Made by a program: the position numbers and the translations under genes. From assembly GCA_002110465.1 (NCBI GenBank), contig NEED01000023.1, positions 457,297 to 521,296 on the forward strand: a stretch of DNA of 64,000 nt, read 5' to 3'. The notes under the pieces were generated by a model. The model was not told where the DNA came from and searched no databases. It worked only from the letters and a program-made list of their open reading frames with translations. Source of the stretch: an unicellular cyanobacterium SU2 (GTDB lineage Bacteria; Cyanobacteriota; Cyanobacteriia; Cyanobacteriales; Microcystaceae). Of the stretch, positions 25,333-30,437 are shown in pieces. Within the stretch, counting starts at the first letter, position 1. The number at the start of each line of letters is the position of its first letter.

Positions 25333-25569
25333 GGGAACCTCAGGGACGTTCTATAACCTAGGAGTAAGGGAAATCTCTAGTAATCGAGAGAAGAATTTAG
25401 AGAGATTATTCCTTACCTATCCTTTAAAAAGCTAGATAGTTACTCTATTTTTGTCAGTATTTGCTAAGCTTTTCTTTGCCTAGTCACACCCATTATTTTA
25501 TCGGTTCTTGTCTAGATTAGAAGTTATTTAGACTATATTCATCGAAAATTTAATTATGCTTTAAGAAAG

Positions 25570-25824
25570 TTAGTCTGTAGCACCGCTCTTGGGAAAGTTA
25601 AGGGTTGGCAAGCGATCGCCCCTAAATACTTCTTCGCTGGCTTCCCCTAGTTCCCCTAGTCCTTGAGCCACTTCACGGGCAACTAGCAAGGTACACAACA
25701 ACGGAGCAGTTGCTAAACTTAAGCAGATAATCAAGGGATTAGACGGCTCATTAACTTGACTCAAGATTAGGAACTCCTCAATAGATTTACTACTAATTTC
25801 ATCATATCGCAAAAAAGTCAACAA
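25570..25824 (-). CDS. Small conserved membrane protein
   Basis: The 84-residue protein has one membrane helix (PLIICLSLATAPLLCTLLV, about 29-47) and a soluble tail with VAREVAQGLGELGEASEEVFRGDRLP, which I recognise as a short protein repeated across cyanobacteria. Its first codons overlap the last 23 bases of the haem-oxygenase-fold enzyme gene, so it is likely translationally coupled; alternatively the true start is an internal one downstream of the overlap. Function is unknown. Confidence 0.6.
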   Translation of the reverse strand: MLTFLRYDEISSKSIEEFLILSQVNEPSNPLIICLSLATAPLLCTLLVAREVAQGLGELGEASEEVFRGDRLPTLNFPKSGATD

Positions 25825-26818
25825 ATTGTCGAGGAAAATAGTTTCCTTGATGAGTATAGTAGTCTTTTATTTCTAGCTTTTGTAAATCAAAGGCATGCTT
25901 AAGATCATGAATTTTGTTAACCACTACATCTAGTTTAGCTATTTCTATTTTGTCTAATAAATCTCTATGGTTTTCTAGCATTTTTCCATGACCTAACTGT
26001 GCATCTATTCTAGTATGTTCAAGAAAAGGTCTGAAAGTTTCTGGGGATAACTGATAGTTTTGGGTCAGATTTTGCTGAAATTCATCAGCTTGAGAAGCTT
26101 CAAAATCAGTTGCTTCAATTATGTTAGCTACTAATAAGACTGAGCAAGGCTCAAATTCAAAAAGTTCTCTCATTAAAAGGTTAATGGTACGAGTAGAAAC
26201 CAAGGGAATACTTTGTTCAATTTCCTGCCGTGAAAGTCCTATGTGCAGGAGTGATTCAGTAATAAATTCTTCATGTCCCTGTTCTTCTTGAGCATATTGA
26301 GTCAGAACAGCTTTAAGATCACCTGTCGCATCGTTAGCAGCAAGATCGATTACCTTGGGAAATTCTTTAATATAATGGTAAGTTTCTAAAAGCCAGCCAA
26401 TGACAACATTTTTGCAGACTTTTCCTTGCATAATTTCGTTGATAATATGGGTTTCTCTAAGTTGTTCTCCCCAAATTTTACAAGCGGCTAAAAGGTTTTT
26501 TTTGATTTCTTGAGGAGTGAGCAAATCAAGAGGTTTTATGGGCGGATGCAGAATATTAGCTGCAATTAATGAATTAATTAAAGCCGAAACCTCGTTAACA
26601 GAAACCCCACTTTTGTGAGCAATTTCTTCAATGGTGTTATGTCCTGTACAGTGGCTTCTAATCTGCATAAACTTAGAGGCATCACTGGTAGGAACAGAAA
26701 AGGTCGAATGACTGACAGTAAGGTAAGTTATCGTTGGATCATCTTCTGGCGTAATCCAGAGATTATGACGAAACTTAGGATACTGATTAAAATTGTGATT
26801 AGTAGAATAATTGACCAT
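25802..26818 (-). CDS. PqqD-like domain + haem-oxygenase-fold (HDO) putative di-iron enzyme
   Basis: The 338-residue protein appears to have two parts. Residues about 15-95 resemble a PqqD-like winged helix: a strand pair (TITYLTVSHSTFSVP), then ASKFMQIRSHCTGHNTIEEIAHKSGV and VSALINSLIAANIL. Residues about 110-320 are helical with metal-ligand patterns of haem-oxygenase-like iron enzymes: ETYHYIKEF, AQEEQGHEEF, NIIEATDFEA and RIDAQLGH. Such enzymes perform oxygen-dependent chemistry on small molecules or peptides, and PqqD-like domains often bind peptide substrates. Upstream is a secreted small protein and downstream a small membrane protein, all on one strand. The assignment to a RiPP-like role is inference. 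Confidence 0.65.
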   Translation of the reverse strand: MVNYSTNHNFNQYPKFRHNLWITPEDDPTITYLTVSHSTFSVPTSDASKFMQIRSHCTGHNTIEEIAHKSGVSVNEVSALINSLIAANILHPPIKPLDLLTPQEIKKNLLAACKIWGEQLRETHIINEIMQGKVCKNVVIGWLLETYHYIKEFPKVIDLAANDATGDLKAVLTQYAQEEQGHEEFITESLLHIGLSRQEIEQSIPLVSTRTINLLMRELFEFEPCSVLLVANIIEATDFEASQADEFQQNLTQNYQLSPETFRPFLEHTRIDAQLGHGKMLENHRDLLDKIEIAKLDVVVNKIHDLKHAFDLQKLEIKDYYTHQGNYFPRQFVDFFAI

Positions 26819-26930
26819 TTTTGACCGGGATTTTAAACTGCAATAGGATGAGATAAGTAGAGACAGTTTAAAGAACGGTCTCTACCTCAAGCAATAAAGC
26901 TAATACAAAATTGCCTATGAAACGGATTTA

Positions 26931-27263
26931 TTAACCACAAGTAGCACCGACAATTGTAGTGATCCCTTTTTTCTCAACTGGAGTAAGTCTTAAACCACCT
27001 TGACGTTGAGTTTCTTCTGATACTTGAGTGCGTTCATTTTTCTGGGTTAATGGACGAGAAAATTGTCTTTGTCCCTGTTGAATTACCTCACGACGTACTT
27101 CACGAGCAGAATTAGTTATAGGAGATCTAGTACTCGGTTCAATTTTAACTGATTCAGCCATTGCTACTGTAGATAATAAAATAGTAGGTGCAACAACACT
27201 TAGGACAAGCAGCAAACGGCCTGATAAATTCAAGGTAGACATCAAAATTAATTTGACTTTCAT
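26931..27263 (-). CDS. Small secreted protein with Sec signal peptide
   Basis: The 110-residue protein has a clear signal peptide: basic MKVK, a hydrophobic core (LLLVLSVVAPTILLSTV) and an AMA-ES cleavage site near residue 36. The mature part of about 74 residues is hydrophilic, rich in Arg, Gln, Thr and Glu, and ends in TTIVGATCG, the only cysteine in the mature chain. No known domain is visible. It lies about 110 bases upstream of the haem-oxygenase-fold enzyme gene on the same strand. It may be a substrate of that enzyme or simply a periplasmic protein. The start could also be the Met at residue 8. Confidence 0.55.
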   Translation of the reverse strand: MKVKLILMSTLNLSGRLLLVLSVVAPTILLSTVAMAESVKIEPSTRSPITNSAREVRREVIQQGQRQFSRPLTQKNERTQVSEETQRQGGLRLTPVEKKGITTIVGATCG

Positions 27264-27736
27264 TATTATTAGCCCTCACTAGGTTTATCTTTTTGGTGAA
27301 ACTCAATGATTAGCTTAACATTATCAAAAATAGACTTCAGTCCCATCAAAAGTGATAACAAGTAGAACAAAATAGAAAAAAGTAGAATACTCTTGATTGT
27401 TTATGAGGGGATTTAAAAAGCCTAATTTTTGTGCTTAAAAATACCAATATTTTAGAGAGATCTACAATAAAAAATATCGGAAATCACTCTAGTTTAAAAA
27501 ATTAATATATTTCAAATTCAATAATATATTAAAAAATTTTGATTTAAAAATATTATCTTATAATCAATACAAATAAAGTAACAATTAAATAATTAAACCT
27601 GTCAAACCAAAGTTGAATTATTAAAAAGTGAAGGGTGGTTGATCAGACAACAATTAGTTTAAGATAAAATAGTCAGAGCTATCAATTTATACTCATCACG
27701 AGTGAACTAATACTTTAGACTAACAATAGTTGAACC
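27264..27736. other. AT-rich divergent intergenic region
   Basis: This 473-base gap separates divergent genes (the secreted small protein and the lysozyme-like protein). It is very AT-rich around 27480-27600 and has no open frame that looks coding. It must hold both promoters, but I cannot place them with confidence. Confidence 0.4.
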
Positions 27737-28372
27737 ATGCGCCCTATTTATAAAACATTTTTGATGGTTACTGTCTTGAGCATCGGATTACGATTATTCT
27801 CCATATCCATTAATAATTATCATAAGCGATCGCCATTTCCTTTATCGTCTTCCTATGAATCTCAACCCCTAGTAATGCAAGGAGGAGATCCCTATATTCG
27901 CGCCTTAATGCGAACCATTACAGCCAGTGAAGCCAATGTTAGTCAACCTTATCATGTCCTCTACGGGGGTCAATCTGTTTCAGATTTGAAGCAACACCCT
28001 AACCGTTGCATTACCATTGTTACCGGACCGAATGAAGGTAACTGCACCACCGCAGCCGGACGTTATCAATTTTTAAACATAACTTGGGCAGAAAAAGCAA
28101 AACAATATCATCCCAAGTCTTCAGGGTTATTATGGTGGAAATCCTACAGCTTTGAACCAGAATATCAAGATAAAGTAGTTTATCGCTGGTTAAAAGATCC
28201 TCAAGCTTGGGGGGTTAATATTCCTCAACTACTTCGGGAAGGAAATATTGATCAGGTGTTACGATTGCTATCGGGGACTTGGACAAGCTTAGGATACGGA
28301 ATTGAGACAAATTCGATGAGTCCCCATTTACCCAAAATCTATCATCAGGTATTACAAGAGGAATTAGGTTGA
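27737..28372 (+). CDS. Lysozyme-like glycoside hydrolase (GH24-type), membrane-anchored
   Basis: The 211-residue protein has an N-terminal hydrophobic segment (FLMVTVLSIGLRLFSI) that serves as anchor or signal, then a lysozyme-like domain. Key stretches are LMRTITASEANVSQPYHVLYGG (with the likely catalytic Glu of ASEAN), DLKQHPN and NCTTAAGRYQFLNITW, as in phage-type muramidases that cut peptidoglycan glycan strands. The tail (LLSGTWTSLGYG) matches the family. It probably acts on the cell wall in the periplasm. It is a single gene between the secreted-protein cluster and dnaX. The fold family is fairly sure; the target is inferred. Confidence 0.75.
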   Translation: MRPIYKTFLMVTVLSIGLRLFSISINNYHKRSPFPLSSSYESQPLVMQGGDPYIRALMRTITASEANVSQPYHVLYGGQSVSDLKQHPNRCITIVTGPNEGNCTTAAGRYQFLNITWAEKAKQYHPKSSGLLWWKSYSFEPEYQDKVVYRWLKDPQAWGVNIPQLLREGNIDQVLRLLSGTWTSLGYGIETNSMSPHLPKIYHQVLQEELG

Positions 28373-28572
28373 GGGTGATTGAAAGGGAGAGAACATCGAG
28401 AGATTAATTTCTAGAGAACGGCTCTTTGGTATAATACGATTGTTCTAAAGCCTTGTTATCGATTCAGTTCTCAGATTGACTAAGTAGGTTAGCAAAAATA
28501 AACGACTGTTTGTAATAAATTGTTTTAGGAAAAACTTTTTATTTTATGTTTAATTTAAACAACTTACTTGCT

Positions 28573-28605
28573 TAACTATAAACTATCAACCATCAACTAT
28601 TAACT
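28573..28605. repeat. AACTATC/AACTATT heptamer array upstream of dnaX
   Basis: Four to five AACTATM-type heptamers end only about eight bases before the dnaX start codon. The array therefore takes the place where a ribosome site would be expected. It is the same family as the arrays at 12784 and 22231. Confidence 0.6.
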
Positions 28606-28613
28606 AAGCGTAA

Positions 28614-30437
28614 ATGTCTTCCTATGAACCCCTACATCATAAATATCGTCCCCAGACCTTTGCTGATTTAGTGGGACAAGAAGCGATCGCCACAACCCTA
28701 ATTAATGCCATTGCTTCTCAAAGAATTGCTCCTGCTTACTTATTTACAGGACCGAGGGGAACAGGAAAAACCTCCTCAGCAAGAATTTTAGCCAAATCTC
28801 TCAACTGTCAACAAGTAGAAAATCCTACTTCAACCCCTTGCGGTGAGTGTGAGGTTTGTCGAGCGATCGCTAGGGGATCAGCCTTAGATGTCATTGAAAT
28901 TGACGCAGCCAGTAACACAGGGGTGGATAATATTCGAGAAATTATTGAAAGAGCACAATTTGCCCCTGTTCAGTGCCGCTATAAAGTTTATGTGATTGAT
29001 GAATGTCATATGCTCAGTGTGGCGGCGTTTAATGCCCTCCTTAAAACCCTTGAAGAACCCCCAGACCGAGTGATTTTTGTCCTGGCTACCACCGACCCCC
29101 AACGAGTTTTACCCACCATTATTTCTCGCTGTCAAAGGTTTGACTATCGACGCATACCTCTAGAAGCGATGGTCAGTCATTTAGGAAAAATTGCCCAGCA
29201 TGAAACCATTAAGATTGAAGATCAAGCCTTAACCTTGGTCGCCCAAATTGCCAATGGAGGGTTACGAGATGCAGAAAGTCTTCTAGACCAACTAAGTTTG
29301 CTCTCAGGAACGATTACGGCTGAAAAAGTCTGGGATCTAGTGGGGGCAGTTCCTGAACAGGATTTACTAAAATTATTACAGGCGATCGCTTCTGATAGTC
29401 CAGAATTAGTAATCGATAGCTGTCGTCACTTAATGAATCGAGGGAGAGAACCCTTAGTGGTTCTCCAAAATTTAGGGGGATTTTACCTCAACCTTTTGAT
29501 TGCTAAAACAGCCCCTAATCGTCCTGATCTGGTAGCGGTAACAGCTACTACTTGGCAAGCTTTGTGTACCGAAGCCCAACAATGGGAAATCAATACGATT
29601 CTACAAGGACAGCAACGACTTAAAGAAAGTGAAGTTCAACTGAGGAATACTACCCAACCCCGTTTATGGTTAGAAGTGACTCTTTTGAGCCTATTACCAT
29701 CGGCTTGTCGTTCTCAACTTGTTGTCGAATCTCATCAGGAAATACAAAATAATACTTCGATCCTTCGACAAGCTCACGACAAAGCCAGTTCAGTGACCGG
29801 GCAGATCGCAACTAAGTGCGATAATCAGGCAAAAGGCAACATTTCTCCTGCTTTATCTCCTCCTCCCCCTTGGGCTGAGCGACAGTCGAAGCCCCACTCC
29901 CCATCTCCTCCCCCCTCACCCTCCCCACTCCCTCAAGTAGAAAAGACAACGACGGATCAAGAACTTAATGTCAATCAAATCTGGTCTTTAGTATTAGCTA
30001 AATTACAACCTTTTGCTCAAGATATGGTGAAATCTAATTGTCATTTTCTGAAATTAGAGGAGTCAGCAGCTTATATTGGCGTTAAGAGTCAAGGATTGCT
30101 CAAATTAGTCCAAGGAAAAATTCCTGATCTTGAAGCGGCTTTTGAAGCAGTGTGTCAGCATCCCATCAGAGTCCATCTCAAAGTGGCTTCTCCTCCACCT
30201 TCTGGTACTTCTGGGATTTCCCAAACCGTTCAGTCGTCATCTCCTTCTGTTTCCCCATCTCCTTCAACTGCTTCTCCACTCGATAATAAAGCAATCTCTC
30301 AACCTGTTAACCCTCAACTTATTACACAGTCTCATCCTTCCCAAAGCCAAAACGGAGCAACGCGGAAAGTTGTTGAACCCCAGAATAAATTACCCCTTCA
30401 ACCAGAGACTTCTATTCCTGAAAAAAAAAAGATTTAA
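28614..30437 (+). CDS. dnaX: DNA polymerase III gamma/tau subunit, zero-frame product
   Basis: DnaX is the clamp-loader ATPase of the replisome. The AAA+ core has Walker A GPRGTGKTS at residues 46-54, a zinc module (C65, C76, C79, C82), Walker B VYVIDECHMLS near 123 and LEEPPDRVIFVLATTDP near 145. A long Ser/Pro-rich linker follows domain III, containing two repeat-derived pieces. No intein is present. The zero frame ends at 30437, just after a run of ten A (30421-30430). In the -1 frame the protein continues for 131 codons. The zero frame holds AAA AAG codons after an A, i.e. the A-AAA-AAG slippery heptamer. The 607-residue form is probably the short product of a slippage site. Confidence 0.95.
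   Translation: MSSYEPLHHKYRPQTFADLVGQEAIATTLINAIASQRIAPAYLFTGPRGTGKTSSARILAKSLNCQQVENPTSTPCGECEVCRAIARGSALDVIEIDAASNTGVDNIREIIERAQFAPVQCRYKVYVIDECHMLSVAAFNALLKTLEEPPDRVIFVLATTDPQRVLPTIISRCQRFDYRRIPLEAMVSHLGKIAQHETIKIEDQALTLVAQIANGGLRDAESLLDQLSLLSGTITAEKVWDLVGAVPEQDLLKLLQAIASDSPELVIDSCRHLMNRGREPLVVLQNLGGFYLNLLIAKTAPNRPDLVAVTATTWQALCTEAQQWEINTILQGQQRLKESEVQLRNTTQPRLWLEVTLLSLLPSACRSQLVVESHQEIQNNTSILRQAHDKASSVTGQIATKCDNQAKGNISPALSPPPPWAERQSKPHSPSPPPSPSPLPQVEKTTTDQELNVNQIWSLVLAKLQPFAQDMVKSNCHFLKLEESAAYIGVKSQGLLKLVQGKIPDLEAAFEAVCQHPIRVHLKVASPPPSGTSGISQTVQSSSPSVSPSPSTASPLDNKAISQPVNPQLITQSHPSQSQNGATRKVVEPQNKLPLQPETSIPEKKKI
29764..29895. repeat. Dispersed-repeat-like pieces inserted in the dnaX linker
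   Basis: TTCGACAAGCTCACGAC (29764-29780) and GGGCTGAGCGACAGTCGAAGCCC (29871-29893) look like the dispersed 'TTCGACAAGCTCA' and 'GGGCTTCGACTTCGCTCAGCCC' repeats seen between genes in many cyanobacteria. Both are in frame within the unstructured linker of DnaX, which probably tolerates insertions. Confidence 0.45.
30421..30430 (+). promoter_or_regulatory. A10 slippery site in dnaX
   Basis: Ten consecutive A, giving codons GAA AAA AAA AAG ATT TAA in the zero frame. A one-base gain in RNA (eleven A) or a -1 ribosomal slip on A-AAA-AAG joins the dnaX frame to the downstream open frame at GAT (30431). A-runs of nine or more are known sites of transcript slippage, and A-AAA-AAG is the E. coli dnaX frameshift heptamer. 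Confidence 0.65.

What the first reader, a model, noticed from the sequence alone, without database searches (positions are those of the whole stretch)
25570..27263. PqqD-like + haem-oxygenase-fold enzyme beside a secreted Cys-ending small protein: candidate peptide-modifying cluster
Three minus-strand genes sit together: a 110-residue secreted protein ending TTIVGATCG, an enzyme whose N-terminus resembles a PqqD-like peptide-binding domain and whose C-terminus has iron-ligand patterns of haem-oxygenase-like oxidases, and a small membrane protein overlapping its end. A substrate + tailoring enzyme + membrane helper layout is what a RiPP-type system would look like. The secreted protein carries a Sec signal, unusual for RiPP precursors, so the link is only a hypothesis. 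I know of no described system with this set.
Basis: inference. Interest (0 to 1): 0.6.

Follow-up and report, generated by a model that had tools for sequence, protein, structure and literature searches.

The report
Iron-oxidase-like enzyme with Cys-Gly-ending peptide
A rare bacterial gene pair, scattered over distant phyla, encodes a small peptide ending in cysteine-glycine and an iron-oxidase-like enzyme with a peptide-docking domain, so it probably makes a modified peptide of an undescribed type; the copy in this genome is unusual because its peptide carries a secretion signal.

Summary
The enzyme (25802-26818, minus) joins an N-terminal domain whose predicted fold resembles RiPP recognition elements (RRE) to a haem-oxygenase-like dimetal-oxidase (HDO) domain; six putative metal ligands are identical in 17 of 17 full-length enzymes. 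It is nearly unique in its own phylum, but sparse relatives occur in Proteobacteria, Bacteroidota, Bacillota and Actinomycetota. Relatives were found by enzyme only; in 15 of 16 a short same-strand ORF directly upstream ends in Cys-Gly and in the 16th in Cys-Ala, against 7 of 3,034 other ORFs. Some are only 20-22 residues long. The window's 110-residue protein ends VGATCG; three of its four closest relatives also end GATCG. It differs by a Sec-type signal, a long spacer and no adjacent exporter (an MFS gene follows directly in 8 of 16 relatives). Most likely this is a two-gene RiPP-type module in which the enzyme docks the peptide and oxidises its C-terminal Cys(-Gly). Substrate role, chemistry, product and function are inferred. 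Ten literature searches listed no description of the pair.

The parts
26931..27263 (-). Putative precursor gene, 110 aa, single Cys, ends VGATCG
   Evidence: a Cys-Gly-ending ORF lies at the same position upstream of 15 of 16 related enzymes
27156..27263 (-). Signal-like N-terminus of the precursor (about residues 1-36, AMA/ES)
   Evidence: read from the sequence; hydrophobic stretch from residue 17, mean KD 2.5 over 15; no signal-peptide program was run
26934..26993 (-). C-terminal 20 residues of the precursor, LRLTPVEKKGITTIVGATCG, the part comparable with whole 20-22 aa precursors of relatives; similarity is clear only in the last 8
26934..26939 (-). Terminal Cys-Gly, proposed site of modification
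   Evidence: modification itself inferred
26857..26885 (-). Hairpin GTAGAGAC-loop-GTCTCTAC between precursor and enzyme; possible attenuator or processing site
   Evidence: gap folds at -23.0 against -15.2 +- 2.5 in shuffles; more than 2 sd better than shuffles in 14 of 17 loci; only copy in the window
25802..26818 (-). RRE-like/HDO fusion enzyme, 338 aa
26534..26785 (-). N-terminal RRE-like domain (residues 12-95)
25853..26515 (-). HDO domain (residues 102-322) with putative ligands E179, H182, E235, H268, D272, H277
25811..25843 (-). Conserved tail motif N-Y-x-P-R-x-x-V-D-x-F (residues 326-336)

Best explanation
The pair is a minimal RiPP-type module. The short upstream gene makes the substrate peptide. 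The enzyme's N-terminal RRE-like domain docks the strand-like, often basic segment that precedes the end of the peptide and so presents the C-terminal Cys-Gly to the HDO site in the second domain. There a dimetal centre (3 His, 3 carboxylates) activates O2 and oxidises the terminal Cys residue or the Cys-Gly unit. Shown here: the gene pairing, the recurrent Cys-Gly end, predicted RRE-like and HDO folds, conserved ligands. Inferred: that the peptide is the substrate, that Cys is the modified residue, that iron and O2 are used, and the product. In half of the relatives an MFS exporter follows and could export the product; in this genome a Sec-type signal at the front of the precursor could do so instead.
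For: 15 of 16 full-length relatives have exactly one same-strand ORF ending Cys-Gly directly upstream of the enzyme, the 16th (L110) one ending Cys-Ala; of 3,134 ORFs of 15 aa or more in those loci 22 end Cys-Gly, 15 of them these. Window enzyme groups with L065, L066, L108, L109 (99/99), and 4 of these 5 precursors, the window's included, end GATCG while 0 of the other 12 do. Six ligands identical in 17 of 17; HO-fold matches Z 19.6 to 3dde, 18.5 to CADD, 16.8 to PqqC, 16.6 to UndA, 16.1 to FlcD. N-domain model matches McbBCD complex, heterocyclase, PqqD, PbtF-RRE, TbiB1 and MccB structures. The only enzyme with H148Q and N326S (L110) is the one whose peptide ends Cys-Ala. An HDO-type protein, VarO, is reported to act in a RiPP pathway (PMC6511847, passages).
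Against: No modification has been seen. No PqqD or RRE sequence profile matches the N-domain, Foldseek E is 0.03 at best, PqqD itself scores only Z 5.5, and unrelated winged helices and a methyltransferase score about as high as several RRE rows. A profile built from 14 other precursors does not retrieve the window protein, and over 20 residues without the last two columns it ranks only 22nd of 732 window ORFs. The window protein is far longer than the others and no relative of its N-terminal part was found. No conserved protease gene was noticed in the loci. Relatives are partly redundant (L071/L104; L105-L107).
Confidence: 0.7

Rival explanations
1. Carrier (pearlin-like) version of the same idea: the peptide is a scaffold and the real product is a small sulfur metabolite made from the terminal Cys(-Gly), later cut off and exported.
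For: Only the last two residues are shared by nearly all precursors; the gene after the enzyme is a sulfite-exporter-type TauE permease in L109 and a class-V aminotransferase in L065 and L107. MNIO enzymes act on C-terminal Cys of scaffold peptides in pearlins (PMC12452194, passages).
Against: No peptidase or Cys-adding enzyme was noticed beside the pair; in pearlins the Cys is first added to the scaffold, here it is encoded; the window copy has none of the extra genes.
Confidence: 0.25
2. The enzyme removes the terminal Gly oxidatively (like peptidylglycine amidation, recalled) and leaves a C-terminal Cys amide; Cys is not itself oxidised.
For: Gly is last in 16 of 17 precursors including the window's.
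Against: Cys is penultimate in 17 of 17, while the last residue can be Ala (L110).
Confidence: 0.12
3. The short ORF is a regulatory leader peptide (translation of its end, with the following hairpin, controls the enzyme), not a substrate.
For: Very short ORFs followed by a stable hairpin in 14 of 17 gaps.
Against: Four precursors are 65-67 aa and the window's is 110 aa with a signal-like start; the enzyme carries an RRE-like domain; one Cys codon at the very end is a poor attenuation sensor (inference).
Confidence: 0.08
4. In this genome the two genes are not a working pair: the 110-aa protein is an unrelated secreted protein whose end resembles the motif by chance, or the module is decaying.
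For: No relative beyond E 0.026 in 50 family genomes and none in plasmids; poor alignment before the last 8 residues.
Against: Same strand, 112 bases upstream, GATCG end as in its enzyme clade; ranks first of 732 window ORFs over the last 8 residues even without the Cys-Gly columns; the enzyme keeps all six ligands.
Confidence: 0.08

Closest known systems
VarO, the haem-oxygenase-like protein of the thiovarsolin RiPP cluster (PMC6511847, passages)
   Same: A haem-oxygenase-like protein acting in a RiPP pathway; deletion suggests a dehydrogenation
   Different: There the class-defining enzymes are YcaO-TfuA and the precursor is repetitive; here the HDO is the only tailoring gene beside a Cys-Gly-ending peptide. 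Sequences of VarO were not compared here
HDO enzymes CADD, UndA, FlcD, BesC, HrmI, MboA and the cofactorless relative PqqC
   Same: Fold of the catalytic domain; E-x2-H and D-x4-H spacing as in the MboA alignment
   Different: Reported to act on amino acids, small peptides or small molecules (partly recalled; MboA on a tripeptide, PMC13185094 passages); none of the matched structures was seen to carry this N-terminal domain arrangement
RRE domains (McbB, LynD, MccB, PbtF, TbiB1, PqqD)
   Same: Predicted fold of residues 12-95
   Different: No sequence-profile match; fused to an HDO here
Bufferins and other MNIO-modified RiPPs (PMC12452194, passages)
   Same: Iron oxidase acting on Cys of precursors, some with N-terminal Sec signals
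   Different: MNIO (DUF692) enzyme with a separate partner protein; here an HDO with a fused docking domain
Paired HDO genes of cyanobacterial clusters with GG-type or NHLP-like small proteins (L008-L014)
   Same: About 23-27% identical over the HDO domain; short peptides nearby by eye
   Different: Mostly two HDO genes side by side, one apparently lacking ligands; the small proteins listed nearby do not end Cys-Gly (by eye)

Membership tests
HDO (haem-oxygenase-like dimetal oxidases) | Haem-oxygenase-like fold | tested here: met
   Pfam Haem_oxygenas_2 E 1.6e-9; Z 15-19.6 to HDO structures and 3dde
HDO (haem-oxygenase-like dimetal oxidases) | Three His and three carboxylate ligands (3H/3C, PMC13108848 passages) | tested here: met
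   E179, H182, E235, H268, D272, H277 identical in 17 of 17; assignment by alignment with CADD and MboA, E235 by shifting a 2-residue offset
HDO (haem-oxygenase-like dimetal oxidases) | Binds a dimetal centre and activates O2 | not testable with these tools
   needs protein
RRE domain | Three strands and three helices, winged-helix fold | tested here: met
   best matches mostly RRE-bearing RiPP enzymes, weak E-values
RRE domain | Match to the PqqD profile in Pfam or NCBIfam | tested here: not met
   None for the window protein; TIGR04248 (PqqD-related) in 1 of 9 members at E 0.063; for the other members one search shows 25 of 37 families. RRE-Finder models were not available
RRE domain | Binds the leader of a precursor | not testable with these tools
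   needs binding assay
RiPP system | Ribosomal precursor gene conserved beside the tailoring enzyme | tested here: met
   15 of 16 CG and 1 of 16 CA ORFs directly upstream
RiPP system | Post-translational modification and maturation of the peptide | not testable with these tools
   needs mass spectrometry
Pearlins | C-terminal Cys added to the scaffold after translation | tested here: not met
   Cys is encoded in the ORF
Bufferin / MNIO RiPPs | Modifying enzyme is an MNIO (DUF692) | tested here: not met
   P0001 matches Haem_oxygenas_2 and no DUF692 model
   45 of 50 family genomes have it, 1 of 50 has the enzyme

The most novel reading that the evidence does not exclude
A new RiPP class, sparsely spread over about five bacterial phyla, in which a single RRE-HDO fusion enzyme performs new oxidative chemistry on a C-terminal Cys-Gly of peptides as short as 20 residues, giving a metallophore or a sulfur metabolite; in this genome it has been rewired into a Sec-secreted modified protein that needs no dedicated exporter.
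Probability: 0.45. Interest if true: 0.85.

Novelty: new variant of a known kind. Interest (0 to 1): 0.72.

Why it matters
HDOs are a large superfamily (over 10,000 members, PMC13108848 passages) with few known peptide substrates. A two-gene system with a 20-residue substrate and a fused docking domain would be a very simple handle on HDO chemistry on peptides. The Cys-Gly end predicts the modified site, and the pair can be mined by one rule: enzyme tail NYxPRxxVDxF plus an upstream ORF ending Cys-Gly. Such short ORFs are easily missed by gene callers.

Tried and rejected
Rejected: (a) the membrane protein as a system part. (b) A chance Cys-Gly end. (c) The gene 27737-28372 as a third member: divergent strand, no Pfam or NCBIfam match. 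(d) Defence gene: no PADLOC match for enzyme or peptide at E 0.01. (e) Mobile-element borders: only short imperfect repeats in 25400-28700.

The enzyme-peptide complex could not be predicted with the tool on hand. Families absent from the VIA lists are not thereby excluded, because VIA re-ranks Foldseek's candidates only.

Left out of the 16-locus count, with what was seen: distant HDO loci L111, L112, L113 (E about 1e-22 to 1e-34) have no CG ORF in the same window (0 of 3), so the pairing is tied to the full-length subfamily; L073 and L074 (partial, distant) show no CG ORF among the upstream ORFs printed; the second HDO of genome G663 (L093), the plasmid hits H2-H4 (L062-L064) and the cyanobacterial HDOs L002-L014 were not tested in that way.

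Papers: passages only of PMC13108848, PMC6511847, PMC13185094, PMC13419390, PMC8120280 and PMC12452194; term look-ups without hits in PMC12710340 and PMC7470986; abstract and outline of PMC13060819. Ten searches listed no paper on this pair; subscription papers and most preprints are not in that library.

Full report
What is in the window. Three minus-strand ORFs lie at 27263-26931 (110 aa), 26818-25802 (338 aa) and 25824-25570 (84 aa). The 338-aa enzyme matches Pfam Haem_oxygenas_2 (E 1.6e-9, residues 142-290), with only weak helix-turn-helix matches before it. The 110-aa protein has a signal-like start, one Cys, and ends VGATCG. The genome looks cyanobacterial: GCGATCGC occurs 34 times in the window against 0.19 expected; that this octamer marks cyanobacteria is recalled. 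The window lies in a 653-kb contig.

The membrane protein is not part of it. It has a match in 45 of 50 genomes of the same family, whereas the enzyme is found in 1 of 50. In four of six congeners (G182, G184, G185, G186) the order is ppc, this small gene, dnaX, and no ORF between matches the enzyme, the 110-aa protein or the 27737 gene; in the other two (G181, G183) the surroundings differ and none of these three is present in the stretch read either. So these genes are specific to this genome among those compared. In the other 44 genomes homology begins at residue 12 or later of the 84-aa ORF, so its overlap with the enzyme is probably an artefact of the early TTG.

The enzyme is rare. In the window's order 5 of 148 genomes (own included, E up to 1e-8) and in its phylum 3 of 386 (own included, E up to 1e-6) have a match; all but its own are 23-27% identical HDOs over part of the length. 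Plasmid records gave one full-length relative among four hits, on Rhizobium etli p42f (26% over 96%, E 6e-26). An alignment of the two found ten loci in genome contigs, eight of them full-length: Litchfieldella (51%), Serratia inhibens (42%), a Bacteroidetes MAG, Actinocrinis, Wocania, Alteribacillus, Streptomyces natalensis and a Hyphomonadaceae MAG. Searches of groups around these gave matches in 5 of 293, 2 of 303, 1 of 227, 2 of 220 and 4 of 220 genomes (seed genomes included; two of the last four are weak, E about 1e-35).

The key result. For the 16 full-length relatives (L061, L065-L072, L104-L110) I listed same-strand ORFs of 15 or more residues ending between 400 bases before and 200 after the start of the longest enzyme ORF: 100 ORFs. 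In 15 of 16 loci exactly one ends in Cys-Gly; in the 16th (L110) the ORF directly upstream ends Cys-Ala. In the same loci, both strands, 22 of 3,134 ORFs of that size end in Cys-Gly, 15 of them these, which leaves 7 of 3,034 as background. The relatives were chosen by enzyme, not by peptide. They are not all independent: L071 and L104 are nearly identical, and L105, L106 and L107 form one clade. Several peptides are complete at 20-22 residues, taking the internal ATG in L065 and L108: for example MKLKKISKKSTKKLGGATCG (Serratia, its whole ORF) and MKLKKVDAAKTSTRRVNGATCG (Litchfieldella). Four are 65-67 residues (L067 by an internal ATG).

The window copy fits its own clade. The window enzyme groups with Litchfieldella, G936, G1386 and Serratia (99/99). 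In this clade 4 of 5 precursors end GATCG; 0 of the other 12 do. Against this: a profile built from 14 of the 16 other precursors (L104 and L106 left out as near-duplicates) did not retrieve the window protein at E up to 20. By a right-anchored matrix it ranks first of 732 window ORFs over the last 8 residues, with or without the last two columns; over 20 residues it ranks second with them and 22nd without. Its best match in 49 other family genomes has E 0.026, and plasmids gave none. So only the end is clearly shared.

Enzyme anatomy. The AlphaFold2 model (nine sequences, mean pLDDT 82.5) has an N-terminal strand-strand-strand-helix-helix-helix unit and a C-terminal helical bundle. The bundle matches 3dde (Z 19.6), CADD (18.5), PqqC (16.8), UndA (16.6), FlcD (16.1) and BesC (15.1). 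The N-domain modelled alone (pLDDT 78) has as first Foldseek matches the McbBCD complex (rank 1), a heterocyclase, and PqqD at rank 6, with ThcOx, the PbtF RRE, TigE and TbiB1 among the first 16, but E is 0.03 at best and none reaches 0.001. The second aligner puts MccB (Z 8.6) and the PbtF RRE (7.8) on top; a methyltransferase (7.6) and GATOR1 winged helices (7.1-7.2) score as well as TigE (7.4) and lasso B1 (7.1), and PqqD has only 5.5. No PqqD profile matches. I therefore call the domain RRE-like by fold, not a proven RRE. Six putative ligands, E179, H182, E235, H268, D272 and H277, are identical in 17 of 17; the spacings E-x2-H and D-x4-H are those in the alignment to MboA. The tail NYxPRxxVDxF is nearly invariant (N326 16 of 17, the other fixed positions tested 17 of 17; Y327 not counted there). 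The one enzyme with H148Q and N326S is L110, the one whose peptide ends Cys-Ala: a single case, but a lead to the residues that read the peptide's end.

Operon features. Between precursor and enzyme the RNA folds more than 2 sd better than shuffles in 14 of 17 loci (not L061, L065, L068; in L068, L071 and L104 the gap was run to a late GTG and includes some likely coding bases). This may keep the peptide in excess over the enzyme (inference). The gene directly after the enzyme is an MFS transporter by Pfam in L066 (below the curated cut-off), L068, L070, L071, L104, L105 and L108 and by eye in L106: 8 of 16. In L065 an MFS gene is second, after a class-V aminotransferase; in L109 the next gene is a TauE permease, in L107 a class-V aminotransferase, in L069 a GMC oxidoreductase. 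In L061, L067, L072 and L110 I noticed no transporter directly after the enzyme on its strand. The window has none either, but has the Sec-type signal.

Mechanism. The best reading is that the RRE-like domain holds the segment before the end while the HDO site oxidises the terminal Cys(-Gly). That the peptide is the substrate, that Cys is the site, and that iron and O2 are used are inferred. HDO-type action on a RiPP is reported for VarO (PMC6511847 passages); Sec-exported, Cys-oxidised RiPPs are reported for bufferins (PMC12452194 passages). Whether the product is the peptide, a metal ligand or a released small molecule is open.

Novelty. Ten literature searches listed no description of this pair in the open-licence library; papers outside it could hold one. 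I class it as a new variant of a known kind: a RiPP-type system with an enzyme architecture and a substrate rule that I could not find described.

Noticed in passing
L008-L014 (e.g. L012 6363-8588, L010 8230-10359): In other cyanobacterial-phylum genomes, distant HDO relatives mostly come as two adjacent HDO genes, one apparently lacking metal-ligand residues, near small GG-type or NHLP-like proteins and ABC transporters: probably another family of HDO-based RiPP clusters (by eye).
   Followed up: partly
L064 6638-8713 (Tistrella mobilis pTM3): A 691-aa ORF joins two such HDO units in one protein, followed by a further HDO-like ORF (by eye).
   Followed up: no
L110 6770-7831 and 4077-6749: The one relative with a Cys-Ala-ending peptide also has H148Q and N326S in the enzyme; beyond it lie a membrane-protein ORF and a radical-SAM-like ORF on the other strand (by eye).
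   Followed up: partly
L061 10216-18975 (Rhizobium etli p42f): The Rhizobium pair sits beside AIPR, PD-(D/E)XK, Z1 and methyltransferase genes; the PD-(D/E)XK protein matches MzaD below its cut-off, so this looks like a defence island.
   Followed up: no
L105, L106, L107 (actinobacterial-order genomes): Larger clusters follow the pair: MFS, an ornithine-cyclodeaminase-like ORF and, in G663, a second HDO (by eye); a class-V aminotransferase and a carrier-protein-like ORF in L107.
   Followed up: no
window 25570-25764: Small membrane protein family found in 45 of 50 genomes of the taxonomic family, beside ppc in most of the stretches read; no Pfam match.
   Followed up: partly
window 27737-28372: Lysozyme-like gene (by eye), no Pfam or NCBIfam match, in the same genome-specific segment as the pair and divergent from it.
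   Followed up: no
L113 (Serratia inhibens, second locus): Two more adjacent HDO genes beside aminotransferase- and aldehyde-dehydrogenase-like ORFs (by eye), without a Cys-Gly ORF upstream.
   Followed up: no
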